The notes beneath the pieces were generated by a model. It worked only from the letters and a program-made list of their open reading frames with translations. It did not search any database and had not been told where the DNA came from. Below, piece by piece: positions 30,989 to 55,175 of a stretch of 56,451 nucleotides of DNA (positions are counted from its first letter, which is position 1; each line of letters begins with the position of its first letter). This stretch comes from a virus. The stretch covers positions 1-56,451 of IMG/VR virus record IMGVR_UViG_3300026518_000669. One strand, given 5' to 3'. The translations under genes and the position numbers were made by a program.

Positions 30989-32185
30989 ATGTTTAACGGC
31001 TCCCGTTTCAATGGGGCAGCATACAATGCTGGCTCTGGGGGTGTTCGCGTCCTGCTGGCATCGGCTGTGCTGGCGGTTTCATCTACCGGAAATGCGGAGC
31101 CGTTGCGCACCCAGTATGGCGCAACGGATGCGCCTGTTCAGGCTGGCATCCATGAGCCACGAGCGGTAGCTGAGCGCGCAGCCTCAACACTGATCTACCC
31201 AGCGGCCATCTTTGATGTTTCGCGGCCATGGGACTTGGCCACCGCCGAGATGTGGGCGACGGGCAGCTTAGAACCTGAGCACCTAGTTATTCGGGCTGGC
31301 GTCGCGGGCATTGAAGCAAAGGCTGTCTTGGGTGCTGACGCCATTCGCTACGCCTTCTTCTCTGACATGCAGGCGTCGGCGCAGATTGGTCCGGTTCAGG
31401 CTTGGGGCATTCGCCCTGGCGTCGCTGAGATTCAGGTAAACGCTACCGGCGAGATATTTGCAACGCGAGAGCGGCCCGGGGCAAGCGGCCTGCTGGCAAC
31501 AGCAACAGCGTCGTTTGATGGAGATATATTCGCTGGCGGCATTACTGATTTTGTGCCGTACAGCGCCTTCTTTGCAGAGCCCCACCTAAACGGCATCCAG
31601 CCCGGGTGGTCTGCCCTAGATGTTGTTACCCGTCTAACTGTCGGCGGCGACCGCATGGCGGGCGGAAATACGGACGGCTTAGTGGCGTCTTGGTTTGATG
31701 CGTCGGCTTTGCCAGGGCGCGGCGCGCAGGTAAACGAAGGCATCGTTACCGCTGAGCTAACGGCTGTTTGGTGGGCGTTCAACTATGAAAAGTGCACGTT
31801 CACGACTCAGTCAGCCCTGACGGCAAACCCTACGCGAACGTCAGCAGGCGTCTCTACGCTCGATGCGAAAGCATTTGTAACAGCCCCCTGGTCGCTGATT
31901 GTTGAGCCCCGCAAAACCCTCGTTGTTAGTGGCGCATCACTAACGGCCACGCCTTGGCGCATACGACCTGTAGCAGCTGATGCCAGCGTGGAAGGCACTG
32001 CCTACGCCTACGCCAACCGCATCTACTACTTGAGCGTTACCTTCGATGGGGTGGGGTCGGTTATGCGCAATCGCTTGAGCGTCAATCTAACGAATCAAGC
32101 GCCCCCTGCTCGCCAGATGGTCGCGCCTTTCGAGTCGCGCGCCATGGTGGTGCCTGCGGAAAATCGGACAATGGTGGTTTTTTAA
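30989..32185 (+). CDS. Virion structural protein, unknown function
   Basis: The 398-residue protein begins MFNGSRFNGAAYNAGSG and is beta-rich with repeated Ala/Thr/Val segments of similar type (for example IRAGVAGIEAKAVLGADAIR and IRPGVAEIQVNATGEIFATR), as if built of repeated beta modules. It lies within the tail genes just before the fibre adaptor. It may be a tail or fibre shaft component; no family is recognised. Confidence 0.7.
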   Translation: MFNGSRFNGAAYNAGSGGVRVLLASAVLAVSSTGNAEPLRTQYGATDAPVQAGIHEPRAVAERAASTLIYPAAIFDVSRPWDLATAEMWATGSLEPEHLVIRAGVAGIEAKAVLGADAIRYAFFSDMQASAQIGPVQAWGIRPGVAEIQVNATGEIFATRERPGASGLLATATASFDGDIFAGGITDFVPYSAFFAEPHLNGIQPGWSALDVVTRLTVGGDRMAGGNTDGLVASWFDASALPGRGAQVNEGIVTAELTAVWWAFNYEKCTFTTQSALTANPTRTSAGVSTLDAKAFVTAPWSLIVEPRKTLVVSGASLTATPWRIRPVAADASVEGTAYAYANRIYYLSVTFDGVGSVMRNRLSVNLTNQAPPARQMVAPFESRAMVVPAENRTMVVF

Positions 32186-36708: not shown

Positions 36709-38359
36709 CGCCTTTCGTGGCGAGCTACCGATTCTTGATCCTCGCCTGCTGCCTGAGAATAACGCGCAGGTAGCGCGCAATGTTTACCTGAAGCGCGGCA
36801 CGCTGCGGCCTGAGAAAGCCCCTTCCACGGTGGTATCACTGCCAGGCGTTACCAGCCCCGCCAACTTGTACCACTATGACGTGGGTAGCGATGGCGATGG
36901 ATTCTGGTTTTCCTGGGGGCAGTCTTATGATGTTGACGTGGTTCGCTCGCCGATTGCCAGCGATGCTTATGCCCGGGTGTACTGGACAGGGCAGGGTCCG
37001 CCTAAAATGTCATCGCTCGATATGGCAACCGGCGGGAGTGGGCCATACCCCTCTAGCTGGTATCAGTTGGGCGTACCAGCACCCAGTGAAGCGCCCAGCG
37101 TTGCCACGCCATCTGATCGTGTCCCTCCCGAGCCTATCCGCAACGAACAAGGCGATGTGATTGAAGAGATCACGTTCCCGCCAAGAACCTCGCTGGAAAC
37201 CGTTTATGTAGTGACCTGCGTTACGCGCTTTGGTGAGGAAGGCCCGCCAAGCAATCCGTCTGGCTTTATTTCGCGCTGGGACAGTGGCGAAGATATTCCA
37301 GCAGGCGGCTCGGTTGAGGTAAGCCTGCCCAGCATTCCGAGCGGCAACTTTGATATTGTCGCCAAAAGGATTTACCGCGCAGAGAGCGGCGGGCAGTACC
37401 AAATGGTGGCCGAGGTAGACGCGTCGGCAGCGAGTTACACCGATGGCGTTAATTCAGCAGCGCTGGGCGTTACACTGCAAAGCCTGGAATGGGACATGCC
37501 GCCTGCACAGTTAACCGGCTTAACGCAGCTTCCTAACGGCATATTGGCAGGGTTCTTTGATAGCACCCTAGCGTTTAGCGAAGCCTATCGACCCCACGCC
37601 TGGCCAGTGGGTTACCAGCTGGCGTTCGATGATCCTATTGTCGGTATCGCATCGATCAGCGTCGGCTTGGTCGTTGTGACTACCGGGCAGCCCTGGCTGG
37701 TGACTGGCTCGAGCCCAGCCGCTATGTCGCAAATGCAGCTTGACGTTAACCAATCCTGCGTTGCCAAGCGCTCCCTGGTAGACATGGGCGGCTTTGCGCT
37801 CTACGCCTCTCCGGATGGTATTGTGGCGGCTGGTGGTGACGGCGCCCGAGTGGTAACGCGAGAGCTATTTACTCGCGAGCAGTGGCAAGCACTAAACCCT
37901 AGCACCATTCACGCGTACCGCCACGATGGCCGCTATCTAGCGTTTTACAGCGGTGGCTGCTTTGCGCTCACGCTGGGCCAGGGCGTGGAGTTTTACGACC
38001 TGAGCGCAAGCGGTGGTTACTACGATGTCACGCGCGACATACTGTATCTTATCCAAGGCGGCAGCGTTTCAGCCTGGGGTGAGGGTGAGGCCATGACGTA
38101 TACATGGCGGTCACGACTACACGAAATACCGCCAGGCGCTGCAGGGTTTAGCTGTGCCAAGGTGATTGCTAGCCAGTATCCGGTAACGCTTCGCGTGATT
38201 GCCGATGGAGAGATGGTTCTTGAGCATGAGGTGATCGACGCACATCTCTTCCGATTGCCCGCAGGCTACACGCTGTCGCGAAACTGGGAAATTGAAGTGT
38301 CCGGCAGCCACGAAGTGCACTCCGTGCAAGTCTCAACGTCGCCGGGAGAGCTCATTTAA
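36692..38359 (+). CDS. Large virion protein, unknown function
   Basis: The 555-residue protein begins MKIQHSAFRGELPILDPRLL and is beta-rich, with repeated propeller-like segments (FALYASPDGIVAAGGDGARV, HAYRHDGRYLAFYSGGCF, DVTRDILYLIQGGSVS). A C-terminal beta domain (SCAKVIASQYPVTLRVIADG) follows. Proteins of this start and length occur in tail regions of podoviruses and are taken as tail or stopper components. The GTG start at 36692 has GGGAGG six bases upstream. Confidence 0.74.
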   Translation: MKIQHSAFRGELPILDPRLLPENNAQVARNVYLKRGTLRPEKAPSTVVSLPGVTSPANLYHYDVGSDGDGFWFSWGQSYDVDVVRSPIASDAYARVYWTGQGPPKMSSLDMATGGSGPYPSSWYQLGVPAPSEAPSVATPSDRVPPEPIRNEQGDVIEEITFPPRTSLETVYVVTCVTRFGEEGPPSNPSGFISRWDSGEDIPAGGSVEVSLPSIPSGNFDIVAKRIYRAESGGQYQMVAEVDASAASYTDGVNSAALGVTLQSLEWDMPPAQLTGLTQLPNGILAGFFDSTLAFSEAYRPHAWPVGYQLAFDDPIVGIASISVGLVVVTTGQPWLVTGSSPAAMSQMQLDVNQSCVAKRSLVDMGGFALYASPDGIVAAGGDGARVVTRELFTREQWQALNPSTIHAYRHDGRYLAFYSGGCFALTLGQGVEFYDLSASGGYYDVTRDILYLIQGGSVSAWGEGEAMTYTWRSRLHEIPPGAAGFSCAKVIASQYPVTLRVIADGEMVLEHEVIDAHLFRLPAGYTLSRNWEIEVSGSHEVHSVQVSTSPGELI

Positions 38360-38367
38360 TAACGCCT

Positions 38368-38379
38368 AGCCGTGAGGCT
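38368..38379 (+). other. GTGA-loop hairpin
   Basis: AGCC-GTGA-GGCT ends three bases before the ATG at 38383. Its GAGG is the only evident ribosome site. Confidence 0.62.
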
Positions 38380-38382
38380 CGC

Positions 38383-40041
38383 ATGAATAATCGACGTAAG
38401 ACGCTGCCCCCGATTGACCCCAAGACCGACCCGAAGCTGCGCCCGCTTCTCGAAGCGCTTAAGGAAATCACTGAAACCGGTGACGGCGTGCGCGGTGATC
38501 CTATGGATCGCAAGCTGACGATTCGCGACTTGGTGGATGCAGGGCTAGCCCGCCTCAGGCCAGGCAGCATGACGGAGTTTGGCCCCGCTGATGACGAGGC
38601 CATCGACAACGACCCGCCTGGTTCAACGCTGATTCCGCCGCGCCCAACAGGCTTTAACGCTATCGGAAGCTTTGGCTATATTGTGCTGTCCTGGGATATT
38701 CCCGGTGACCAGTATCTTAATCATGCCTTTACCAATATCTATCGCAGCGAGACCGACAACTTCGCTAATGCGGAGATGATAGGCCGCGATACTGGGATGA
38801 TGTATACCGATCATATCCGAGAGGTTGAGGAGGATGGCGTTGGGTTTTACTACTGGATCACCTTTACCAGCACGGAGGACAGGGAAGGGCCAGCCAACAG
38901 CACTAGCGGTACCTATGCCGAAGTCATTCCGGATATTGGTTTTTTACTGGATAAGCTTTCTGGCCAGGTAAACGAAGAGGTGTTGACGCCTGCTTTTAAA
39001 AATAGGCTTAATGGCTTTCAGGAAACAATCAGTGATTTAGGCGACCGTTATACGCTGTCGGTGACCAATAACGGGTACGTTTCTGGCTTTACCATCTTCA
39101 ATACTGGGCAGCAAAGCGACTTCGCTGTCTTGGCCGACCGCTTTACGATAGCCAATCAGTTTGGCGATGAACGTCATCCATTCTTTGTGACCGGCGGAAA
39201 GACCTACATTGATACCGCATTTATCAGAAACGCCTCTATCCAAGAAGGCCAGCTTGGCCCTATATCGTTTGGCAAAATAACCGATAGTCGCGGGAATCCT
39301 GTTACTACCGTTGCAGGCAAGCTAAAGGGTGAGCTGATTGAGGCGGATAATTTAAGCGTTGCTGAAGCAGCAAAGTTTTATGGCAACGTTTTTTCAAATA
39401 ATTTTCGGTCAGGTGTTTCTGGCTGGGCGATATACCAGAGCGGTAACTTCGAGCTAAACGAGGGGCGCATTAGAAACTCGGTTCAGATTGGCAATACGAC
39501 GGCTGGCGATATAGCTCAGGGCGTAGGTAGTATTAATAACTGGAAGCGCCCTAACTCTACTCTTATTGATGGCAATAAGATTTTCACCGGCGATGCATAC
39601 GTCGATACTTTGCAGATCAAGGGTGAAGCTGTAACAGTGCCTGTGGCTTCTTTCACTGAATCTGGGATAAGTTTAGGTACTAACTGGACTACCGTACAAA
39701 CACTTTGGGTTAGTCGTGCCAATGCTCCTATACATCTGACGTTTGGTTGTTCTTGTCGCGCAGACGACTCATCGTCGGCAGTTGCCGATGCGTCTGTATC
39801 TGCCCGGTTGGTAATAAACTATCGGGAGGCTGCGGTCTATAACACAATCGTCAGTGACTCTGCTAGGGCATATAACACCGGTTCGGGGACTGTATTTGCG
39901 CGCGCACGTGGCTTGTTTTCGGGAGGCTATCTGTTAGGCGCTGGTACTGGCGCAGCTATAGTGCAAATACAACTGTCCCGAACTGGAAACTCGGGTGGTG
40001 CCTTTAATCGCTTCATTCAAGCACTTACCGTTAAGAGGTAA
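38383..40041 (+). CDS. Tail-tip protein with fibronectin-III and gpJ-like segments
   Basis: The 552-residue protein has a proline-rich start, a fibronectin-III-like domain (~85-165: RPTGFNAIGSFGYIVLSWDI) and a segment typical of lambda J C termini (RYTLSVTNNGYVSGFTIFNT, DFAVLADRFTIA, ~225-270). A beta-rich tip ends in NRFIQALTVKR. J-like tip pieces are usual in siphoviruses, so their presence here suggests modular exchange. It probably contributes to host contact. Codon use becomes more AT-rich towards its end. Confidence 0.8.
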   Translation: MNNRRKTLPPIDPKTDPKLRPLLEALKEITETGDGVRGDPMDRKLTIRDLVDAGLARLRPGSMTEFGPADDEAIDNDPPGSTLIPPRPTGFNAIGSFGYIVLSWDIPGDQYLNHAFTNIYRSETDNFANAEMIGRDTGMMYTDHIREVEEDGVGFYYWITFTSTEDREGPANSTSGTYAEVIPDIGFLLDKLSGQVNEEVLTPAFKNRLNGFQETISDLGDRYTLSVTNNGYVSGFTIFNTGQQSDFAVLADRFTIANQFGDERHPFFVTGGKTYIDTAFIRNASIQEGQLGPISFGKITDSRGNPVTTVAGKLKGELIEADNLSVAEAAKFYGNVFSNNFRSGVSGWAIYQSGNFELNEGRIRNSVQIGNTTAGDIAQGVGSINNWKRPNSTLIDGNKIFTGDAYVDTLQIKGEAVTVPVASFTESGISLGTNWTTVQTLWVSRANAPIHLTFGCSCRADDSSSAVADASVSARLVINYREAAVYNTIVSDSARAYNTGSGTVFARARGLFSGGYLLGAGTGAAIVQIQLSRTGNSGGAFNRFIQALTVKR

Positions 40042-40044
40042 TTT

Positions 40045-40404
40045 ATGTTCAATAGATATGCTTTTGTTTCAGTTGAAGGTCGTATAGAAAGCATCATTTC
40101 TGGGCCGATGCGTTATGTCGAGTGTAGTAGTGAAATAAGGGACACAACTCATTACTTTGACAATACATTGGGCGTTATTTGTAGAAAGGAAGCACTCAAT
40201 TATCAGCAAAACACTAGAGGATTGGTCGTTACTTTTGAAGGGGTTCCGTCTGGTGTAAAGGTTGAAACCAACGGCATGGAAACTATTGCGGATAATGAAC
40301 CGCTAGTGATTGAGTATGATGTTCCGGGCACTTATACGATCATCTTTAGTGGACACGTTCGTTATCTAGATCATGAGCTGGAGGTGACGGTTGGCAACGC
40401 TTAA
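40045..40404 (+). CDS. Small tail protein with AT-rich composition
   Basis: The 119-residue protein starts MFNRYAFVSVEGRIESIISG and ends with an Ig-like beta segment (EYDVPGTYTIIFSGHVRYLD). It follows the tip protein by three bases. It is visibly more AT-rich than neighbouring genes, as is the end of the previous gene, which suggests that the tip module was acquired as a block. Function is unknown. Confidence 0.72.
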   Translation: MFNRYAFVSVEGRIESIISGPMRYVECSSEIRDTTHYFDNTLGVICRKEALNYQQNTRGLVVTFEGVPSGVKVETNGMETIADNEPLVIEYDVPGTYTIIFSGHVRYLDHELEVTVGNA

Positions 40405-40768
40405 AGCCAGTACGTTTAATGATCGTGATAGCGCCGAACGCCACTTTCTCGGCCTTGTGGATCAGGGGGCAGAGAACGCTCGTATGCGACATTTGACTCC
40501 TGGCCCCGGTCAGTCGATGACGTATGAACTCAAGCATCAGGAAGCGCTTGCAGGCGGTGGGCCAATGATTGCTGCCGAGGCTGAAGCGCTAGGCGTCACA
40601 AATCAAGAGGTGGTTGACTCGGTGCTGCTGGCCCGTCAAAAGTGGCAGGCGTTGAGCGCCAAGATTGAATCTGCGCGACTGAAGGCCAAAAAGCAGATAC
40701 GTGAAGCCGAGACGGCGGTCGAAATGCACCGCATTGCCAGTGAGCTACAAGGCCAGCTCGCGCCGTAA
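40391..40768 (+). CDS. Tail/virion protein, unknown function
   Basis: The 125-residue protein (MATLKASTFNDRDSAERHFL; helices ESARLKAKKQIREAETAVEM) is mostly helical. I use a TTG start at 40391 with GAGGTG six bases upstream, because no ATG or GTG lies near and the frame overlaps the preceding gene. It may be a chaperone or tail component. Confidence 0.65.
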   Translation: MATLKASTFNDRDSAERHFLGLVDQGAENARMRHLTPGPGQSMTYELKHQEALAGGGPMIAAEAEALGVTNQEVVDSVLLARQKWQALSAKIESARLKAKKQIREAETAVEMHRIASELQGQLAP

Positions 40769-42694: not shown

Positions 42695-43954
42695 ATGTCA
42701 GGACTCGATACACGCGGCTTGGCCAGCGGCTTTGCGCAAGGCTTTGGGCTGATGAACCAGTATCAGCAACAGCAATTCCAGAACGAGCGCGCTGAAAAAC
42801 AGGATGCGATGCAAGCCGAGCAATTCGACATGCAGAAGCAACAGTTCAGCGCCCAGCAAGAAGATGTGCAGCGGCAGCGCGATATGGAAGAAATACAGTT
42901 CACGCTCGGCAAGATCGGCTCCGGCATGGACGTCGCCGAAGACGAGCTGGAAACCCTGCGCCGGTACCCGAAGTTTTGGGCCGCGCTAGACCCGCAGACA
43001 GACGCCTCTATTAATCAGGCCATGGCGGTGATTGACCCCAACACCACGGTAGATGCTAACGATCCCGAAAGCCTGGAAGCGCTCAACCAGATGTTTGGCG
43101 CCGAGATTAACCGTGGCGAGGGTGGCCAAAAGCGTGTGGTTGGTATGTATCCCGGCACGGACGGGCAGAGCGTCATGCTTGAGCTGGAAGTAGTGGGCGA
43201 GGACGGCAATACCTACCGAGCGCCGATGACCGAAGGGCGCGGTACCGCTGATGACGACCTGGTTAAAGCGGTGCCAATTGAAAAGCTGGTGGAGCAGGTG
43301 CAAGGCATGCGTTTGCTACGCAATACCATGCGCACGCCAGAAGCCCAGCAGCGTGCGACACAAGTGCTTGGTTTATTGCGTGGTGATAGCAACGAGCGTT
43401 GGGAGCAAGTGCAAGGCCCTGGCGGCTCTATCCTGCAGCGTAATACGGTGACCGGCGAAACTAGGCAGGTGCTAGGACGCGCGCCTCGCGCCGCTGGTGG
43501 CAGTGGCAGCACGCCAAGCCGTATTCAGGAGGCACAGGCGCTGGTGGATCGCGAGGTATACCCAACCTTTGCTGAAGCCTACGAAGCGGTGCGCGCCAGG
43601 GCTGGACAAAATAACCCTGCAGCTAATGCTCGTGACGAACTGGACTACGAGCTTAATCAGCTAGAAAGCATTATGAGTGTACTTAATGACCCTTTATCCC
43701 GAAACCGGCTAAGCGAAGAAGACCTTCAGCGCTACGAGCAAAGAGCGGCGGCTATTCAGGAGCGCATACCTAACCTTGAGCGGCAGGCATTTAATAGAAG
43801 CGCCGAGCCAGCCGGTCAGCGAACGCCTGCCCCGAGCGCCTCTCCACAGTCACAGCCGCAGCCTGAGCGTGAGCGCGGCTTAAGGCCTGGACCAGCACCT
43901 AGCGAAGAAACTGACGAAGACCCTGCTGCTGCCATTTTGAACAAATACTTCTAA
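42695..43954 (+). CDS. Putative ejection protein
   Basis: The 419-residue protein has a long Gln/Glu-rich coiled coil near the start (QNERAEKQDAMQAEQFDMQK), a folded central part (~95-250, VVGMYPGTDGQSVMLELEVV) and a disordered Pro/Gln/Glu-rich C terminus. It immediately precedes the giant internal protein and is probably one of the proteins packed in the head and expelled with DNA. GGAGGT stands before the ATG at 42695. Confidence 0.72.
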   Translation: MSGLDTRGLASGFAQGFGLMNQYQQQQFQNERAEKQDAMQAEQFDMQKQQFSAQQEDVQRQRDMEEIQFTLGKIGSGMDVAEDELETLRRYPKFWAALDPQTDASINQAMAVIDPNTTVDANDPESLEALNQMFGAEINRGEGGQKRVVGMYPGTDGQSVMLELEVVGEDGNTYRAPMTEGRGTADDDLVKAVPIEKLVEQVQGMRLLRNTMRTPEAQQRATQVLGLLRGDSNERWEQVQGPGGSILQRNTVTGETRQVLGRAPRAAGGSGSTPSRIQEAQALVDREVYPTFAEAYEAVRARAGQNNPAANARDELDYELNQLESIMSVLNDPLSRNRLSEEDLQRYEQRAAAIQERIPNLERQAFNRSAEPAGQRTPAPSASPQSQPQPERERGLRPGPAPSEETDEDPAAAILNKYF

Positions 43955-43971
43955 TCAAGAAGGAGCCGCGT

Positions 43972-46900
43972 GTGAACGCCGCCGAAGACCGCACACCGCC
44001 CAAGTGGACAGATATCGCCAATGACCCAGATTTTCAGGCCGCTGACTGGCAGACAAAGCAGCGCGTGCGAGGCGAGTTCTACCGCCGCGCCATTGAGCCC
44101 AATACGCCAGCATCGCTGCGCGAAGATGTGCAAAGCCAGTTCTTTGCCCGCACGGCATCTGACGTGTTTGGTGAGCGCGAAACACCCAATTTAGCCAGCA
44201 ACGCTTTGCGTAACGCTGGTGAGCGCGGCCTCGATTTGGCGGGCAATGCGCTGCAGTTCGTGGGCAACGTGGCAGACCGTGGAGAGCAGGCAATTACCGA
44301 CGCGCTTGGAGGCATTAACCCGGGCGTGATCGGTGGCAGCGTTGACGAGATGCGCGAGCGGGGCTACGAACCGGATGTGGCGCTAGGTGGCTTTGGCCTA
44401 GACTTCACGATGCGCGCCAAGCCAGAGGATACCAGCACCGGGCTTATCGACACTGGGCAGGCGGTTGAAGACATTAGCCTAGGCTACCAGCCTAACTACA
44501 CGATTGACCGTGCCCTTGATGAACCAAGCATTAGAACCATCGCGGGCGCTGCTGCCGAGCAAGGGCCAGCAGCACTGGCCGATATGGCAGGCCTAGTGGT
44601 AAGTCTGCCTGCCTACCTAGCGGCGCGAACACAGGAGATAGGCGAAGGCCGTGTTGAGAACGACAACCGCGAAGGAATGCCGGAAGGTCGCGATTATGCC
44701 GTCTCTGGCCCGACGGCTGCCGCCTCTGTGCTGCTAGACCGCTTTGCTCTTGGCCGATTACTTCCAGGCAGTGGAAATGCGGTAACTAGCGCACGACAAA
44801 TACCCGGGGCTGTTGGTCGCGCCGCAGCTACAGAAAGTGTTACTGAGGCGATTCAAGAGGGTGGTATTGAGTACGCTGGGGAGTCTGTGGGCACTGAGAC
44901 AGGCTGGAATGCCACAACCGCTGCGCGCCGTGCGGCAGGTGGCGTGATTGTTGGCGGCCCCACCGGGGGCGCTGTGCGAGCTGGTACCGCCGCCATGGAG
45001 TTGCGCGGAAATAATCAGCAGGGAAGTGAGCAACCAGAGCCTAGCGAATCCCCTGCTGAGCAATCTTCCCCCGCTCCAGAGGAAGCGCCGACCCCAGAAG
45101 CTGAAACCGCTAATGACGAGGCAATCGGCACCGCTGCCGAACTAATCGCCAAGCCTCGTTTTGAGCTGTCATCCGCTGAGCGCGAAGTGCGCGACTCCAT
45201 TAGCTACGGCGATGCCTTTAAGGCTCTGCGAGCGGCTGCTGAAGCGCGCGGCGATAGTGACGCCGTTGCAGAACTGGACGCCGTTAGCAGCGAGATTTCA
45301 GCGGCGCTGGAAGCGGAAACCATAGCGCGCTCGCGAAACGATAGCGACGCTTTCACACCTATTCGTGAGCAGCTGAAAAGCGCGTCAGAGCGCTTCACGC
45401 GTGTAATGGATCGCCTTAACACGCCCGAGGCTGAGAGCAAGGCAAGCGCGCCCAGCGCTAACAAGGATGGCAACGCCCAGTGGGAAGAGGCTTGGCGCGA
45501 GCAAGCCGCCCAAGACGGCATTGCAGACTACGACCCTAACGCCAACCTGCCTGACACCACGATCACGATTAACGGTGAACAGGTGGCTGATGAATCTCTG
45601 GTGCCGCCCGAAACACTTGACGTTGCGCGCCAAGACGAGCAAGCAGAAGAAGTGACTAAAGAAGTGGGGCAGCCAGCAGTGGCCCAGCCTGAGCCAGCGC
45701 TTGCCCCCGACCAGCCTTCACCCAATCCTGACACCAAGACTCCGCGCCGCGTGCCGGTTGAAAGCATCCAGGTAGACCCCGAGGCCTACCAGTTCCGCGC
45801 CGAGGTAAACGATCAGGGCGTGGACACTCGCCTGGAAGGCATCGAGAAATGGGACGACCTACGTGCTGGCAACCTGATTCTGCATGAGCGTACCGACGGT
45901 AGCGTGTACGCTGCTGATGGTCACCACCGCATTAACCTAGCTCGCCAGCTACAACAGCCAGACGTGAACGCGATTGTGCTGCGTGAAGCCGATGGCGTTA
46001 CCGTTGAGGATGCGCGCCGTGCCGCCGCTGAGGCGAACATTGCCGCAGGCAGCGCTACTGCTTTGGATTCCGCGAAGGTATTCCGTAATAGCAATGGTGA
46101 TATCGATACGGTGATTCGTGAGAGTAACCTGCCGCGTACCCAGCTTGTGCGCGACGGTGCCGACATTGCCAAGCTGGACACTGAGCCGTTTGGTGCGGTG
46201 CTTAACAAGGTAATCACTGAGAAGGACGGCGCGGTTATCGGTCGTTCTTTTGCCGACCCCGACCAGCAGCTTGCCGCCGTGGGCGTCTTCCAGCGAGTGA
46301 AGCCGACCAACGACAATCAGCGCGAGTTGCTAGCCAATGAAGTGCGCCAAGCAGGCTTTGCCGAAAGCCAAGGCGAGCAAGGCGGCTTGTTTGGTAATGA
46401 TCCAGCAGAGTCGCTTATTGGCGAGCGCGTAAAGGTAATGGATAGCCTTCGCCAAACCCTGGTGCGCGACAAGCGCTTATTCGCTACGCTGAACGATAAC
46501 GCCCAAACGGCTGAGCAGGCAGGCAACCGCATTGCCAAGGACCGCAACAACGCCCTACAGGAAACCTCGGCAGACGCCATTGCACTGCTAGAGCGGGCGA
46601 CGACCACGCCGGAAATTAACCAGCAGATCAACGACGCCGCGCGCCGTGTGAAGGATGGCGAAACACTTGCCAGCGTGACGCGAGAACTTAAAGAGGCATT
46701 ACTAAATGGCACAAACAGCCCAGCAGCGAGCGAAGGACGTACACCAGCACCTAGCAGCGGACAGGCTGATCAAGCAGGGCAAGACGCTGGAAGAAGTGAA
46801 CCAGTACCTGCAAGCAACGACGCACGAACAGCGCGTTCAGGAGAACAACGCCCACGCCCTGGAGCAGGAGCGCAAGCAGAACCAGCGGTAACTCTAAAGA

Positions 46901-49900
46901 CTGACGGCACGCCTTTCCAAACCCGTCGCGCTGTTGAACTGTCTAGGCGCTTCCGCGACACGCCTAACGCCCAGCCCGTTGAAGTAGAGGGTGGATGGGG
47001 TTTTGCTGTGGCTGACACGCCTATGCAGAATGCAGAAAGCACTAAGCCAGCAGGCCAGAATGTTAGCGGCCTTACCTCGTTGCCTTATGGGGGCAAGCGT
47101 TGGAACAAGGGCACCAAAACGGCAGAGGAAATGAGCGGCCAGGCGCCTATCGTTGATTACTCCGGTCGCCGCGTTGTGCTGAAAGACGTTAATGGCGTTA
47201 CCGTGCCGTTCTATCAAAGCACTGGCGCCGGCGGCAAGGCAGCCACCAAGCCTGGGCAGTGGTATCCATTCACCGGCATTGGTAGCGATGGCTGGATTAA
47301 CAAGCTGGGCGATGCTGATATATCGCAATACTACGGCAGCCCAGCGCTGCGCCAGGCAGCGCAAGAGCTAGATGCTACGGTTGGTGACATTCGCAGTCGT
47401 GACGATATCCCTAAGACCGGCACGACCGGCACCGGCCAGGCGTTTATTGATGCGGTGAACAGTGCCTTTGATGGACAGCAGGTGTCAGCAAACAATCAGC
47501 CTGACTCAAAAATCAACGTTCAATCCAGCGTTGATGCACTAAAAACAGCCGTTGATTCACAGACCTCCGATCTGGCCCTCGAAACCCAAACAGAAGAAAG
47601 CCTTGCGCAACGCGAGCAGGAAGTTCAGGCCGCTGAACAGACCGAAGCCGACCAGCGCAACCAAGAAGCGCAGCGCGCCCAAGCAGACGCCGAGGTCGAC
47701 GACTTTACTCTATCCGGCAGCAATCGCACCGCTGATGTGGCTGCTGCACGCGGGCAGAGTGACCTGCTTGGCGCGCAGCCAGCGTCTAATGAAAATACTC
47801 CGCCAAGCGAGCAGCAGTATTACCGCGACTGGCCACTATTAGACGAGATGCCTGACGGCTGGAAGAGAGATCCGACCGCCGGATCACCCTTGGCCAGGTA
47901 CGAGTTTGCTACTAACGGCCGTAGCGTGCTGTCTGGCCAGCAAGAGCGTGCGTTAGTGCGAATCAGGCCCGCACCTGCAGCCGGCCAGAACACTGATTCA
48001 CCTACGGCCCAAGTCCAGCAGGATTTAGCCAACGAAGCGCCCAAGCCCAAGCGCCGTAACCAGCCGCTGCAATACACCGGCTACTCAGGCGAACAGCGCA
48101 GCGTGCGCAGCTATCAAGAGGTTGGTAACTTCCGCATTGCCAAGGTGAACGACAGCCTTTACGAAGTGATTAACCCTGATGGTCAAGCCGTTAGCCAGCG
48201 AGCGGGGGCGGACGGTGCCGCACAAGAGGCTCAGCGACTAAACGACCTCCCCGCCGACGACCAGCGCTACGCTATCGGCCAAAGCGACGCCCGCCCGGTA
48301 AGCCGTGACGCCATCGAGGAAGCGCTGGCCAGCTCGCCCGAACTATCCGATGTAACGGTGATCCAGTCCGCAACCGAGCTGCCGCCGCAATCCATCCTGA
48401 TGATGGCCTTGCAAGGCGTGACGCCACGCGACGTGCGCGGCCTGTTCGTGGGCGACCAGCTCTATGTGATTGCGGATAACGTTGATGACGTACAAGAGGG
48501 CGTGCGTACCGCCGTTCATGAAGCCGTAGGTCACAAAGGTATGCGCGCCGTGCTGGGCGACGAGCTAGAAACAGTCATGCGCCAAGTCTATAACTCGCTA
48601 CCATTAGATCCGCGAGGACGCGAGGCGCTGAACGAAGTGCTAGAAAGCTACCCGTTCCTTGATCAGTCCAACCCTGAACATCAGCTTACCATCGCTGAAG
48701 AGATGGTCGCCCACCTCACCGAGAAGGGCTGGCAGCCTAACGTAATACGCCGCGCCGTGGCTAAAATCCGCGAGCTGCTGCGCCGCTACTTCCCCAGCAT
48801 GAACTGGACGGATGCGGACGTTATGCAGCTATCCGAGCGTTCGCGTGAGTACCTGCGCAGCCAGCAGGAAAAGGCGCAAGCGAGTACTGATCCTTGGTCA
48901 GATATGCGCTTTTCAATGGCTACGCCCCCCGGCGGCAACTTTAATCCCAATGACAGCACCAACTTCGCGCTGCCTGATGAAACGCTAAGCCAAACCGCGT
49001 TACGTAAAATGGCTGACAAAATGAACCGCCTCAAAGTCACGCAAGAAGCTATCAAACAAGCCGGTGGCAACATCAATGAAGACAATGATGTGTACCTAGC
49101 GGAGGAGCTTTTCCACGGCAAAACAGAGCGTGACTTGAATGAGCTAAGCCGCAACTACGTCGAGAAGCTAGCCAAAGGCATGGCTGCGCGCGGCATTCAG
49201 CAAGAAGAGTTGGACGCCTACCTTTATGCTCGTCATGCTCCAGAGCGAAATGCCCGAATAGCTGAACGCAATCCTAATGATCCCAAGTACGCAGATGGCG
49301 GCTCAGGCATGACGAATGCCGAAGCGGCCGCCATCATGCAAGAGGCCGAAAGCAGCGGCAAGAAGCTCCGGCTTGAGCGCTTGGCCGCTATCGTGGATGA
49401 CATGCTGGCACATCGCCGCGAGATCATCCGCGAAGGCGGACTGGAGACGGATGAGGTGCTAGATGCTTGGGATGCCAGCTATGACTACTACGTACCGTTG
49501 AAAGGTTGGGCAAATGATGAAGATGTTCCTGTGGGCCAGGACGGCAGTGGCCGGATGCGTTCTGGTCGCGGCTATGAGATCGGTGGGCGAGAAACTAAAA
49601 CGGCGCTTGGTCGCCTATCAAAAGCGGCTTCACCTTCTACGCAAGCGATTGTCGATACCACTGAGTCTGTTATTCGCAAGCGCAAAAACGAAGTTGGCAA
49701 TGCCTTGCTATCACTGATCACGGATAACCCCAACCCCGATTTGTGGCAGGTGTTCACCAACAACGACCCGGATACTCAGCGTACTCAGGTCGAGCGCACT
49801 AACCCAGACGGCACCAAACGCATTGAAGTAGAAGAGCGCCCGGTAGCCATGGAAATGAACGAGCGTTACTTCAAAACCAAGAAGGCGGGCCGGACATACT

Positions 49901-51708
49901 ACATTAAGATCAACGACCAGCGCCTGCTGAACGCAATGCGCAATGTAGGGCCAGAGCAGAACAACCTGCTGGTACGTACTGCCGCAGCTGGCACACGCGC
50001 TCTATCCGCTATGATGACCAGCTATAACCCTGAGTTCATGCTGTCCAACTTTACCCGAGACGTGCAGACGGCGCTTCTGAACGTGGCGGCAGAGCAGACC
50101 AGGGACGACGGCAAGATAAAAGGCCAGAAGATTGCCAGGCAGACGGCGAGAGATATTCCCCGCGCCATGAAGGCAGCCTATCGAGGGCTTGCTGACCCTG
50201 ACGCATCACGAAACACTGAGTGGGATCGTTGGTTCGATGAGTTTATCGAGGATGGGGCCAAGACAGGCTACTTCGATATGAAGGATTTGGCTGGTCAAGC
50301 CAAAGAGATCAAAAGCATTATTGGCCGTGAGAACGGCGGCACTATGGGCAATATGCTGAAGGCGAAGAAGACCGTAGCCGACTTCGTTGAGAACATGAAT
50401 GGCTCCGTTGAAAACGCGGTGCGCCTATCCGCCTACGTCAATGCACGCAGGGCAGGCATTAGCCGCAAGAAGGCCGCCAGCTTGGCCAAAAACCTAACGG
50501 TCAACTTTAACCGCAGAGGGGAGGCCGGCACTGCGCTTAATGCTGCGTACATGTTCGCCAACGCCTCCATCCAGGGCACCATGAACGTCGCCCGCACAAT
50601 GGTCACTGTGAAAGATACGCCGGTGGGCGGTAATAGGATGAACATCTGGGGCCGCATGAACGCCGCTCAAAAGCTAGCGGTAGGTATGGCCGTAGGCAGT
50701 TACGCAATGGCCATGTTCAACCGTATGATGTCAGACGAGGATGATGACGGCGAGCTGTTCTATGACAAAATTCCCGGTCACGTTAAAGAGCGCAACCTGA
50801 TCATCATGACAGGCGGCAAGGACTATGTCCGCATTCCTTTGCCTTATGGATACAGCGTCTTCTCAAACATTGGCACGCACGCTGAATCCGTCATGTCGGG
50901 TAAATCATCACTGACGGAGGCAGGAAAGGACATGACGCTGGCCATTCTTGGCAGCTTCTCACCTATTGGCTTCCAGGATTCAGAGGATATATCCAATTTG
51001 GTGATGAAAAACCTCACACCTACGCTGTTAGGTTCGGTGACCCAGGTGGCAGTCAATGAGGACTTTGCAGGCCGCGTGATCTTTAAAGAGAACTTCCCCT
51101 CCGGCACGCCCAAGCCGTATAGCTCACTTGCCTTCCGCTCTACGCCATCGGCTTACCAAAGCTTTGCCCAGTTTATTAACGAGCTGACAGGCGGCAGCGA
51201 GTACCGGTCAGGCGGTATTGATGTTAGCCCTGACGTACTACAGCACGTGGTCAACTATTACGGTGGCGGTGCTTGGTCGTTTACTGAGAAAGTGGCCGAC
51301 AGCATTAAGCGTACAGCGACTGGCGAGACCATCGACGCCCACCGTATTCCGTTTGTGGGCCGCTTCAAGTCTGAGGTCAATGAGTACGGCGATATTCAAA
51401 CGTTCTACGAGCGCCGTACCGAGGTTGGGCAACTGCATGAGGAGTTTATCAATCTGCCTAGAGAGGAAGCGCGCAGTTTCTATGACGAACATGGCGGCAA
51501 GATAGCGCTGTTTGATATGGCGAAAGATCTTGAAAAAACGCTGACAGAACTACGCAAGGTGCGTGACGCCATCGAGGCCGATGAGCGCCTTACTCCTGAA
51601 GAACGCGACGAACAGCTCGACGAGATTGAAGACGCGATGGATAGCGAGGTGGATTTCTTTAACCTGCTTTACAACCAGGCCGAAGGGACGGTTCAGTCGG
51701 CAAAGTAA
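43972..51708 (+). CDS. Giant polyvalent ejection protein (ParB-like, zincin-like and LPD38 domains)
   Basis: At 2578 residues this is the largest gene. Visible parts in order are: an Ala/Gly-rich N terminus; a disordered Pro/Glu linker (~345-390); a ParB/sulfiredoxin-like nuclease domain (~593-700, DGHHR at 649-653); a helical part to ~915; a folded module (~1040-1150); a metallopeptidase-like VHEAVGHKGM (His1516, Glu1517, His1521); a helical region; and a C-terminal LPD38-like domain (NPEFMLSNFTRDVQTALL, ~2018-2035). Such multi-enzyme polyvalent proteins are injected with DNA to act on host defence or the envelope. The GTG start at 43972 has AAGGAG upstream. Enzyme activities are inferred. 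Confidence 0.85.
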   Translation: MNAAEDRTPPKWTDIANDPDFQAADWQTKQRVRGEFYRRAIEPNTPASLREDVQSQFFARTASDVFGERETPNLASNALRNAGERGLDLAGNALQFVGNVADRGEQAITDALGGINPGVIGGSVDEMRERGYEPDVALGGFGLDFTMRAKPEDTSTGLIDTGQAVEDISLGYQPNYTIDRALDEPSIRTIAGAAAEQGPAALADMAGLVVSLPAYLAARTQEIGEGRVENDNREGMPEGRDYAVSGPTAAASVLLDRFALGRLLPGSGNAVTSARQIPGAVGRAAATESVTEAIQEGGIEYAGESVGTETGWNATTAARRAAGGVIVGGPTGGAVRAGTAAMELRGNNQQGSEQPEPSESPAEQSSPAPEEAPTPEAETANDEAIGTAAELIAKPRFELSSAEREVRDSISYGDAFKALRAAAEARGDSDAVAELDAVSSEISAALEAETIARSRNDSDAFTPIREQLKSASERFTRVMDRLNTPEAESKASAPSANKDGNAQWEEAWREQAAQDGIADYDPNANLPDTTITINGEQVADESLVPPETLDVARQDEQAEEVTKEVGQPAVAQPEPALAPDQPSPNPDTKTPRRVPVESIQVDPEAYQFRAEVNDQGVDTRLEGIEKWDDLRAGNLILHERTDGSVYAADGHHRINLARQLQQPDVNAIVLREADGVTVEDARRAAAEANIAAGSATALDSAKVFRNSNGDIDTVIRESNLPRTQLVRDGADIAKLDTEPFGAVLNKVITEKDGAVIGRSFADPDQQLAAVGVFQRVKPTNDNQRELLANEVRQAGFAESQGEQGGLFGNDPAESLIGERVKVMDSLRQTLVRDKRLFATLNDNAQTAEQAGNRIAKDRNNALQETSADAIALLERATTTPEINQQINDAARRVKDGETLASVTRELKEALLNGTNSPAASEGRTPAPSSGQADQAGQDAGRSEPVPASNDARTARSGEQRPRPGAGAQAEPAVTLKTDGTPFQTRRAVELSRRFRDTPNAQPVEVEGGWGFAVADTPMQNAESTKPAGQNVSGLTSLPYGGKRWNKGTKTAEEMSGQAPIVDYSGRRVVLKDVNGVTVPFYQSTGAGGKAATKPGQWYPFTGIGSDGWINKLGDADISQYYGSPALRQAAQELDATVGDIRSRDDIPKTGTTGTGQAFIDAVNSAFDGQQVSANNQPDSKINVQSSVDALKTAVDSQTSDLALETQTEESLAQREQEVQAAEQTEADQRNQEAQRAQADAEVDDFTLSGSNRTADVAAARGQSDLLGAQPASNENTPPSEQQYYRDWPLLDEMPDGWKRDPTAGSPLARYEFATNGRSVLSGQQERALVRIRPAPAAGQNTDSPTAQVQQDLANEAPKPKRRNQPLQYTGYSGEQRSVRSYQEVGNFRIAKVNDSLYEVINPDGQAVSQRAGADGAAQEAQRLNDLPADDQRYAIGQSDARPVSRDAIEEALASSPELSDVTVIQSATELPPQSILMMALQGVTPRDVRGLFVGDQLYVIADNVDDVQEGVRTAVHEAVGHKGMRAVLGDELETVMRQVYNSLPLDPRGREALNEVLESYPFLDQSNPEHQLTIAEEMVAHLTEKGWQPNVIRRAVAKIRELLRRYFPSMNWTDADVMQLSERSREYLRSQQEKAQASTDPWSDMRFSMATPPGGNFNPNDSTNFALPDETLSQTALRKMADKMNRLKVTQEAIKQAGGNINEDNDVYLAEELFHGKTERDLNELSRNYVEKLAKGMAARGIQQEELDAYLYARHAPERNARIAERNPNDPKYADGGSGMTNAEAAAIMQEAESSGKKLRLERLAAIVDDMLAHRREIIREGGLETDEVLDAWDASYDYYVPLKGWANDEDVPVGQDGSGRMRSGRGYEIGGRETKTALGRLSKAASPSTQAIVDTTESVIRKRKNEVGNALLSLITDNPNPDLWQVFTNNDPDTQRTQVERTNPDGTKRIEVEERPVAMEMNERYFKTKKAGRTYYIKINDQRLLNAMRNVGPEQNNLLVRTAAAGTRALSAMMTSYNPEFMLSNFTRDVQTALLNVAAEQTRDDGKIKGQKIARQTARDIPRAMKAAYRGLADPDASRNTEWDRWFDEFIEDGAKTGYFDMKDLAGQAKEIKSIIGRENGGTMGNMLKAKKTVADFVENMNGSVENAVRLSAYVNARRAGISRKKAASLAKNLTVNFNRRGEAGTALNAAYMFANASIQGTMNVARTMVTVKDTPVGGNRMNIWGRMNAAQKLAVGMAVGSYAMAMFNRMMSDEDDDGELFYDKIPGHVKERNLIIMTGGKDYVRIPLPYGYSVFSNIGTHAESVMSGKSSLTEAGKDMTLAILGSFSPIGFQDSEDISNLVMKNLTPTLLGSVTQVAVNEDFAGRVIFKENFPSGTPKPYSSLAFRSTPSAYQSFAQFINELTGGSEYRSGGIDVSPDVLQHVVNYYGGGAWSFTEKVADSIKRTATGETIDAHRIPFVGRFKSEVNEYGDIQTFYERRTEVGQLHEEFINLPREEARSFYDEHGGKIALFDMAKDLEKTLTELRKVRDAIEADERLTPEERDEQLDEIEDAMDSEVDFFNLLYNQAEGTVQSAK

Positions 51709-53983: not shown

Positions 53984-54142
53984 ATGAAACGAAACGGGCA
54001 GCAGTTCAAAGCACGATTCAACGCGGACGTAAAAGCTTGGATTGAAGAGAAGGCGAGAAAGGAGGATAGAAGTCAGACCTGGATTATCAATCATTACTTA
54101 GAGAAGGCAATGCGCCATGAATCCAAACACTCAGCAGCCTAA
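53984..54142 (+). CDS. arc: Arc-like ribbon-helix-helix repressor
   Basis: This 52-residue protein begins MKRNGQQFKARFNADVKAWI and continues with KARKEDRSQTWIINHYLEKA, the strand-helix-helix of the Arc family, whose P22 founder is 53 residues. AGGAG lies upstream of the ATG. It overlaps the first possible start of the antirepressor frame by 26 bases. It would damp antirepressor synthesis during infection, as Arc does in P22. Confidence 0.82.
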   Translation: MKRNGQQFKARFNADVKAWIEEKARKEDRSQTWIINHYLEKAMRHESKHSAA

Positions 54143-54149
54143 AAACGAA

Positions 54150-54181
54150 GAAGCCCCAGCGTTGAGGGACGCCAGGGCTTC
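54150..54181 (+). promoter_or_regulatory. Attenuator-like hairpin between arc and ant
   Basis: GAAGCCC/GGGCTTC (7 bp) encloses an inner GCGT/ACGC stem with loop TGAGGG. No T-run follows. It lies just before the antirepressor start and may limit its translation or transcription. Confidence 0.55.
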
Positions 54182-54215
54182 GGATTACCACCAACCATCT
54201 ACGAAAGGTGACAAC

Positions 54216-55175
54216 ATGAACGCAACCAGAAAAGGTAACGCTCAAATGAATGATAGCATCACCGACCAAAGCTCGCATCTACCCGTCATCGCAGGCCATG
54301 AGATCACAACCGACGAGCATGGGCGCTTCAACCTTAATGCCATCCACCGGGCCAGCGGAGAAGGGGAGCACAAGCGCCCATCAAAATGGGCCGTAACAGC
54401 CCAGGCAAAAGAGCTTATTGAAGAGCTTGAAGCCCAAGGCCCGATTTCGGGCTTTGCTCCACTCGGCTCAAAACATGGCGGTTCAGGGCGCGGCACCTAC
54501 GCTCATGAGCTTCTAGCCATCAGCTACGCCGGATGGATCAGCCCCAAGTTTCAGCTTCAAGTGAATCAGGTGTTCCTCGACTACCGCATGGGTAAGCTGC
54601 AGCAAGTCGAAACAAAGCCCGCTTGTGAGGCCCTGCCAAACCCTCTTACCCCAGCGCATCAGCGCGGCATCCAAAAAGCCGTTGGTCGCCGCTGCTTCAA
54701 TATGCCAGAAGCGGCACGCCCTAAAGCCTACAAACGCATCTATTCATACCTGAAAGACCGCTTCGGCGTGGCCAAGTACGATCAGATACCGGACGAACTC
54801 TACACCGAGGCGCTTGGTGCGGTGGAATCTTACACGTTCAATGGCGATTTTCTGGAAGCTGAAACGCTGCCGCAAGCCAAGCCGGTTAAGGTGCTGGATA
54901 TCGACGAATGGCTGAACATGAATTACTACATGAAGTCTCGCCAGCAAAATTCAGGGCGACTCTTGGTGACCGCTAAATTCTTGCTGGATTCGGAATACCG
55001 CTCACCCTGTATGCGTTTGGTGAAAGAGCTAGAAGCAGAAGGGCATAACTTGGACGCTTGCCGCCTAGAGATCGCCAGCTTGCGACACCACTTAGAAAGC
55101 GCAGTGGCAAAACTCGAGCATGTCATATCAATGGCGCAAGGCGTCAACATTCAGGCGGTTAGCTTTGCACGCTGA
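54216..55175 (+). CDS. ant: KilA-N/ORF6C-type antirepressor
   Basis: The 319-residue protein has an N-terminal KilA-N-like DNA-binding domain (~20-115: HEITTDEHGRFNLNAIHRAS, RGTYAHELLAISYAGWISPK) and a C-terminal ORF6C-like domain (~145-200: TPAHQRGIQKAVGRRCFNMP, AYKRIYSYLKDRFGV), plus a final coiled coil. Such proteins inactivate phage repressors to allow induction. I start it at 54216, after the attenuator hairpin, where AAAGGTGACAAC precedes ATG. Earlier (54117) and later (54246) ATGs are in frame. It follows the Arc-like gene as in P22. Confidence 0.88.
   Translation: MNATRKGNAQMNDSITDQSSHLPVIAGHEITTDEHGRFNLNAIHRASGEGEHKRPSKWAVTAQAKELIEELEAQGPISGFAPLGSKHGGSGRGTYAHELLAISYAGWISPKFQLQVNQVFLDYRMGKLQQVETKPACEALPNPLTPAHQRGIQKAVGRRCFNMPEAARPKAYKRIYSYLKDRFGVAKYDQIPDELYTEALGAVESYTFNGDFLEAETLPQAKPVKVLDIDEWLNMNYYMKSRQQNSGRLLVTAKFLLDSEYRSPCMRLVKELEAEGHNLDACRLEIASLRHHLESAVAKLEHVISMAQGVNIQAVSFAR

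What the first reader, a model, noticed from the sequence alone, without database searches (positions are those of the whole stretch)
43972..51708. 2578-residue polyvalent protein in the ejection cluster
One chain joins a ParB-like nuclease domain (DGHHR), a metallopeptidase-like HEAVGH motif and an LPD38-like end. The His spacing is one residue longer than classic HExxH, so the peptidase may be unusual or inactive. Such proteins are thought to be injected and to act against host defences; several middle segments match nothing I recognise.
Basis: partly seen in the sequence, partly recalled or inferred. Interest (0 to 1): 0.75.

Follow-up and report, generated by a model that had tools for sequence, protein, structure and literature searches.

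The report
Modular injected phage ParB-peptidase carrier protein
A temperate phage, probably of Halomonas-like bacteria, encodes one huge protein that is very likely packed in the virus particle and injected with its DNA; it joins a DNA-binding ParB domain to a built-in zinc peptidase and a common packaging end, and related phages swap its middle parts like cassettes.

Summary
The 2578-residue ORF is real (43972-51708, GTG start, AAGGAG upstream). Three refinements. (1) The DGHHR domain is not the DdrB-type ParB known from polyvalent proteins. Profile comparison (E 3.5e-5, 236 columns) and a predicted structure (Foldseek E 8e-7 to Noc) align it with chromosomal ParB over the nucleotide-binding domain and the helix-turn-helix, so DNA binding is better supported than nuclease. 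(2) HEAVGH is not a defect. HExxxH plus EE..A is conserved in 39 aligned rows; the published account already describes a HEXXXH set; the only copies without the motif are two second copies. (3) The C-terminal module is homologous to that of JC1 gp69, found in virions by mass spectrometry. The gene is a mosaic with fixed borders: N-module, ParB, linker, payload slot, zincin, payload slot, LPD38 end. DGHHR-ParB and DdrB-ParB never co-occur (0 of 52). A 5.5-kb block holding all the cargo differs at 1 base from a relative whose flanks differ by 5-9%. Best reading: an ejected, self-processing cargo carrier that tethers to DNA. DNA binding, peptidase activity and ejection are untested in this phage.

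The parts
43960..43965 (+). ribosome-binding site AAGGAG before the GTG start
   Evidence: read directly
43972..51708 (+). polyvalent protein gene, 2578 aa
43972..45471 (+). N-module (residues 1-~500), exchangeable: shared with L023, L024, L040, L039, L041, L043, L067; only 42% over the first ~90 residues in L021, no match in L033
45724..46368 (+). ParB domain: N-terminal nucleotide-binding-type fold plus helix-turn-helix (residues 585-799; DGHHR at 45916-45930)
   Evidence: structure; Foldseek/VIA; profile-profile
46411..46713 (+). helical bundle following the HTH (residues ~814-914)
   Evidence: model pLDDT mostly 54-83
46888..47019 (+). small alpha-beta-beta element 'DG.PFQTRRA...GGWGF' (residues 973-1016)
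47050..47556 (+). residues 1027-1195, unidentified; inside the 499-1280 stretch 94% identical in L033; 57% in L049 over 1033-1214
47554..47826 (+). recurring link element (residues 1195-1285; F.L.GS.R.AD..A.RGQ.D motif)
48109..48276 (+). small beta4-alpha2 domain in the payload slot (residues 1380-1435)
   Evidence: model pLDDT ~80
48277..48930 (+). zincin-like metallopeptidase (residues 1436-1653)
48517..48534 (+). HEAVGH motif (residues 1516-1521)
48694..48714 (+). AEEMVAH, candidate third zinc ligand helix (residues 1575-1581)
   Evidence: E142, E143, A146 invariant, H147 90% or more
48892..51690 (+). C-terminal module (residues 1641-2573), homologous to the end of JC1 gp69
50674..50730 (+). 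conserved hydrophobic helix (residues 2235-2253)
   Evidence: mean hydropathy 1.0 or more in 32 of 35 rows; next best site 8 of 35
50761..51357 (+). LPD38 (PF18857)
43680..49184 (.). 5505-bp tract with 1 difference to L020, flanked by 9.2% and 5.2% divergence: exchanged cargo block

Best explanation
It is a phage-type polyvalent protein: a large protein packed in the capsid and ejected with the DNA of a Halomonadaceae-type temperate short-tailed phage. The C-terminal module (helical, one conserved hydrophobic helix, LPD38) is the constant packaging/ejection end. The HExxxH zincin just before it is an active processing peptidase that most likely separates cargo from that end, in the head or after entry. 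The main recognisable cargo is a ParB domain with its helix-turn-helix, which after entry binds DNA and probably tethers the protein to the incoming genome; its NTP pocket may act as a switch. The slots around the zincin hold interchangeable effectors in relatives (ART, PBECR1, pyrophosphatase, helicase plus methylase); in this phage they are short and hold nothing recognisable. Shown here: the ORF, module borders, homologies, conservation and mosaic exchange. Inferred: packaging, ejection, proteolysis, DNA binding and tethering.
For: LPD38 E 5.7e-41. JC1 gp69 C-terminus matches the C-terminal profile at E 4.5e-116, and neighbouring window proteins match JC1 gp43, gp51, gp52, gp53, gp55, tail fibres and gp61; gp69 was found in JC1 virions with 51 unique peptides (PMC9144972 passages). 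Zincin: H, E, H, G and E, E, A, E invariant in 39 rows; predicted zincin-like core, with lethal factor (Z 5.2) and PPEP-3 (Z 5.1) the zincins among the VIA rows. ParB: Foldseek E 8e-7 to Noc, VIA rows over model residues 11-225, profile E 3.5e-5 over 236 columns with three controls at 0.14-0.49. Module mosaic. Payload families in relatives.
Against: No virion proteome exists here for this phage. Foldseek against PDB gave no match at E 0.001 or better for the zincin plus C-terminal model; the zincin matches by VIA are weak (Z about 5). A first, thinner ParB profile comparison was not significant (E 0.3). The ParB CTP motifs are only partly kept (GHHR for GERR; ANIA for ENIQR), so nucleotide binding may be lost. 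No canonical parS was found in the window. Model confidence outside the ParB and zincin cores is low (mean pLDDT 54 and 65).
Confidence: 0.68

Rival explanations
1. The ParB domain is a DNase/nucleotidase that attacks host or rival DNA, as proposed for DdrB-like ParB domains.
For: PMC5512222 proposes DNase/NTPase activity for DdrB-like ParB domains (passages); the arginine of DGHHR is invariant.
Against: No match to PF18763 up to E 10; profile comparison with DdrB-ParB relatives E 0.14, against 3.5e-5 for chromosomal ParB; the HTH is retained.
Confidence: 0.15
2. The zincin is a dead scaffold and the protein is ejected uncut.
For: One residue extra against HExxH; PMC5512222 notes that N4 virion RNA polymerase is packaged unprocessed; second copies without the motif exist in L021 and L025.
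Against: All ligand-type residues are invariant across 39 rows including distant ones at 15-30% identity; the two copies that lost the first motif also lack the second (L021 copy shown as L003), which is how decay looks; one relative (L053) has classic HExxH at the same place.
Confidence: 0.2
3. The protein is chiefly a structural or ejection-channel protein and the mosaic middle is spacer.
For: The C-terminal module is widespread (42 of 52) and has a conserved hydrophobic helix; many LPD38 proteins in BFVD.
Against: Payload slots in relatives hold recognisable enzymes; the ParB module is under strong purifying selection (dN/dS 0.06-0.08).
Confidence: 0.2

Closest known systems
Phage-type polyvalent proteins (Iyer et al. 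2017, PMC5512222)
   Same: Multidomain giant protein in late phage genes; HEXXXH-type metallopeptidase, ParB-superfamily domain, LPD38
   Different: The ParB domain aligns with chromosomal ParB including the HTH and not with the DdrB-ParB model; module order and swap borders were mapped here
Burkholderia phage JC1 gp69 (DarB-like antirestriction protein, 4515 aa)
   Same: Homologous C-terminal module; same position at the end of the virion module; gp69 is in virions by mass spectrometry
   Different: gp69 has HEAFH (classic spacing) and a HepA-type helicase match in the published table; the query has neither a helicase nor a methylase match
Phage P1 Dar system (DarB, DdrB)
   Same: Large internal proteins co-ejected with DNA; DdrB has a ParB-superfamily domain and a C-terminal MPTase (PMC5512222 and PMC12810830 passages)
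   Different: One chain here; different ParB type; P1 is a myovirus
Chromosomal ParB / Noc / KorB
   Same: N-domain plus HTH by structure and profile
   Different: Motifs GERR and ENIQR replaced by GHHR and ANIA; no canonical parS in the window; part of a giant virion-type protein
N4 virion RNA polymerase
   Same: Giant ejected protein with MPTase followed by a C-terminal region needed for encapsidation (PMC5512222 passages)
   Different: No polymerase match here; HEXXH there

Membership tests
Phage-type polyvalent protein | Several unrelated domains in one chain including LPD/MPTase domains | tested here: met
Phage-type polyvalent protein | Encoded among late virion genes | tested here: met
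   upstream genes match terminase, portal, capsid, internal virion, tail and JC1 virion-associated proteins
Phage-type polyvalent protein | Packed in the virion and ejected | not testable with these tools
   only a homologue (JC1 gp69) has mass-spectrometry evidence
HEXXXH zincin-like MPTase of polyvalent proteins | HExxxH helix plus a downstream Glu helix | tested here: met
   (39 rows), model helices 78-116 and 139-155
HEXXXH zincin-like MPTase of polyvalent proteins | Zincin fold | tested here: inconclusive
   VIA: lethal factor Z 5.2 (156 residues, 5.2 A), PPEP-3 Z 5.1 (139 residues, 4.7 A); no Foldseek PDB hit at E 0.001 or better
HEXXXH zincin-like MPTase of polyvalent proteins | Proteolytic activity | not testable with these tools
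   needs the purified protein
DdrB-like ParB (PF18763) | Match to the family profile | tested here: not met
   no hit up to E 10, while 4 relatives (L007, L008, L029, L034) hit at 4e-36 or better; profile-profile E 0.14
ParB/Noc (N-domain plus HTH) | Fold of N-domain plus HTH | tested here: met
   Foldseek 7nfu E 8e-7; VIA 5k5d Z 8.2 over 197 residues, 4.8 A; profile E 3.5e-5
ParB/Noc (N-domain plus HTH) | CTP-binding motifs GERR and ENIQR | tested here: inconclusive
   aligned residues are GHHR and ANIA; Arg and Asn are kept; the role of the motifs is recalled
ParB/Noc (N-domain plus HTH) | Canonical parS site nearby | tested here: not met
   0 matches with up to 3 mismatches in the window; another site is not excluded
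DarB-like antirestriction protein | Helicase and methyltransferase domains | tested here: not met
   no such Pfam match in segments covering residues 1-2280 or in the whole protein; they occur in relatives L010 and L015
LPD38 (PF18857) | Match above the curated cut-off | tested here: met
   141.1 bits against 27

The most novel reading that the evidence does not exclude
The protein is an ejected ParB-type DNA clamp: cut free by its own zincin, it loads on the entering phage genome, may slide along it under NTP control, and shields or marks that DNA while keeping exchangeable effectors at the point of entry. Phages renew the cargo by recombination between a constant C-terminal ejection module and conserved linkers.
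Probability: 0.15. Interest if true: 0.82.

Novelty: new variant of a known kind. Interest (0 to 1): 0.5.

Why it matters
If the ParB reading holds, some phages inject a true ParB-family DNA-binding protein fused to counter-defence cargo, which gives a concrete mechanism (tethering to incoming DNA) for how a few ejected molecules could act at the right place. The mapped module borders make these giants easy to cut into testable pieces. The conserved linker and C-terminal module suggest a natural delivery chassis whose cargo is swapped by recombination.

Tried and rejected
N-terminal membrane segment: the best hydrophobic window in the first 450 residues does not exceed shuffled sequence in any protein at the 0.02 level (0 of 46); dropped. 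ParB identity by a thin profile: E 0.3 with 14 against 5 sequences; it became significant only with 38 against 35; both are told. Of 40 loci tried for the deep ParB set, 37 were caught by the motif search (L115, L147, L148 missed). Canonical parS site: none; the inverted repeats listed were read by eye only and showed no repeated family. Solved-structure sequence searches gave nothing convincing. A combined alignment of ParB and zincin fragments (A7) was visibly misaligned and not used. Link element against named phages: no match, but the tool masks low complexity and the link is coiled-coil-like, so this says little. A DarB-like helicase/methylase in this protein: rejected. In one search the proteins with at least one model match (52, query and JC1 gp69 included) are tabulated out of the ORFs over 600 aa in the loci; redundant loci were left out beforehand by a list in the script; L039 counts as ParB only through its tail element.

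Papers: PMC5512222, PMC9144972 and PMC12810830 were read as passages; all others were seen in search listings only. Searches for a ParB-like CTPase with virion and injected, for large polyvalent with Halomonas and phage, and for LPD5 with polyvalent found 0, 0 and 1 papers; that is the whole basis for saying I saw no earlier account of this ParB type; the supplement of PMC5512222 was not opened (no look-ups allowed).

Full report
What is there. The ORF at 43972-51708 is open for 2578 residues from a GTG with AAGGAG 6 nt upstream. It lies at the end of a virion gene block: terminase, SU10-type portal, capsid, tail, and a PHROGs 'internal virion protein'. Several of these proteins match Burkholderia phage JC1 proteins in the same order. 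The window is an IMG/VR virus record. Close relatives of the ParB module lie in genomes of Vreelandella, Halomonas, Chromohalobacter and Bisbaumannia, so the host is probably of that family (inference).

C-terminal module. Pfam sees only LPD38 at 2264-2462 (E 5.7e-41), but the conserved unit is larger, residues 1641-2573. Its profile matches the end of JC1 gp69 at E 4.5e-116. JC1 gp69 was found in CsCl-purified virions with 51 unique peptides (PMC9144972, passages). The module is mostly helical in the model and has one hydrophobic helix at 2235-2253 conserved in 32 of 35 rows; the next best site reaches 8 of 35. A packaging/ejection role is inferred from JC1 and from the published role of the N4 virion RNA polymerase C-terminus (PMC5512222).

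Zincin. HEAVGH is HExxxH. In 39 aligned rows (query included) H, E, H, G and then E, E, A, E are invariant, with rows down to 15% identity. Of 66 zincin matches in fetched proteins (redundant contigs included), 63 carry HExxxH, one (L053) carries classic HExxH at the same place, and two carry neither; those two are the second zincin copies in L021 and L025. The L021 copy (locus L003 is the same contig) reads ATVVGN in place of HEAVGH. PMC5512222 already describes a set with HEXXXH. So the spacing is the norm of its clade and activity is likely, though untested. Structural support for the fold is modest: anthrax lethal factor Z 5.2 and PPEP-3 Z 5.1 (listed rows only), no Foldseek PDB match at E 0.001 or better.

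ParB. Residues 575-920 are conserved in relatives. The predicted structure aligns model residues 11-225 with Noc, ParB, KorB and pNOB8-type ParB: Foldseek E 8e-7 to 7nfu, VIA Z 8.2 over 197 residues at 4.8 A to 5k5d. A deep profile comparison (38 against 35 sequences) gives E 3.5e-5 over 236 columns spanning N-domain and HTH; a reversed template, the zincin alignment and DdrB-type ParB give 0.29, 0.49 and 0.14. With fewer sequences the same test gave 0.3. YQFR, DGHHR and the Asn of ANIA fall on ParB's QPR, GERR and ENIQR. The DdrB-ParB Pfam model does not match at E 10 although it matches relatives L007, L008, L029 and L034 at 4e-36 or better. Hence 'ParB fold' is confirmed, 'nuclease' is not.

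Mosaic. Blast and profile maps show a fixed order: N-module, ParB, link element, payload slot, zincin, payload slot, C-terminal module. Of 52 proteins with at least one model match, 15 have the DGHHR-type ParB (one of them, L039, only its tail element), 12 the DdrB type, none both; 27 have the link, 25 of these with a ParB; 42 have the C-terminal module, and in the 41 of these that also have a zincin the zincin comes first. The set was gathered mainly by zincin and ParB, so these counts describe order and exclusion, not abundance. In a further set picked by ParB alone, 21 of 28 ORFs have the link; several of the rest are cut by contig ends. Nucleotide matches to L011, L012, L013 and L014 all end at 47010 and resume at 47569-47578. 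Within one gene pair dS varies several-fold by module: L023 0.40, 0.40, 1.45, 0.22 for N, ParB, zincin, C-terminus. Against L020 a tract of 5505 bp (43680-49184) differs at one base while the flanks differ by 9.2% (292 of 3179) and 5.2% (131 of 2512): all the cargo moved as a block. A low-divergence stretch also exists at 38166-40490, so recombination is not limited to this gene, and a chimeric assembly of the metagenome contig cannot be excluded.

Payloads. Relatives carry ART-PolyVal, PBECR1, inorganic pyrophosphatase, LPD1, LPD5, LPD23, and helicase plus methyltransferase in or near the slots. In the query the slots hold a small predicted beta-alpha domain (1380-1435) and nothing recognisable.

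Mechanism. The best reading is an ejected cargo carrier: C-terminal module for packaging and ejection, zincin for release, ParB for binding DNA at the entry point. The constant-delivery, variable-cargo layout works like polymorphic toxins, but that comparison is recalled and not tested. Iyer et al. propose processing by the MPTase and counter-defence roles; P1 Dar proteins are reported as co-ejected with DNA (PMC12810830 passages).

Novelty. The class is known. The ParB type with HTH, the exclusion between the two ParB types, the link element without a convincing Pfam match, and the direct exchange tract are, as far as the searches named in Tried and rejected show, new details: a new variant of a known kind.

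Noticed in passing
window 30989-32185: 398-aa protein between structural genes with no PHROGs (E 0.01) or Pfam (E 0.01) match.
   Followed up: no
L021:11270-13861 and L025:12092-14695: Alternative C-terminal parts after a second zincin copy that has lost its motif; no Pfam match and no match to the usual C-terminal profile.
   Followed up: partly
L024, L064, L067: Proteins with two zincin copies that both keep HExxxH.
   Followed up: no
window 38166-40490: Another low-divergence stretch against L020, in the tail-fibre region.
   Followed up: no
window 54117-55175: Anti-repressor-like protein, with matches to PHROGs anti-repressor and transcription-regulator families.
   Followed up: no
L148 (Dunaliella viridis virus SI2): A record labelled as an alga virus is filed under Caudoviricetes and carries a stretch related to the DGHHR-type ParB module in a hypothetical protein; the host label may be wrong.
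   Followed up: no
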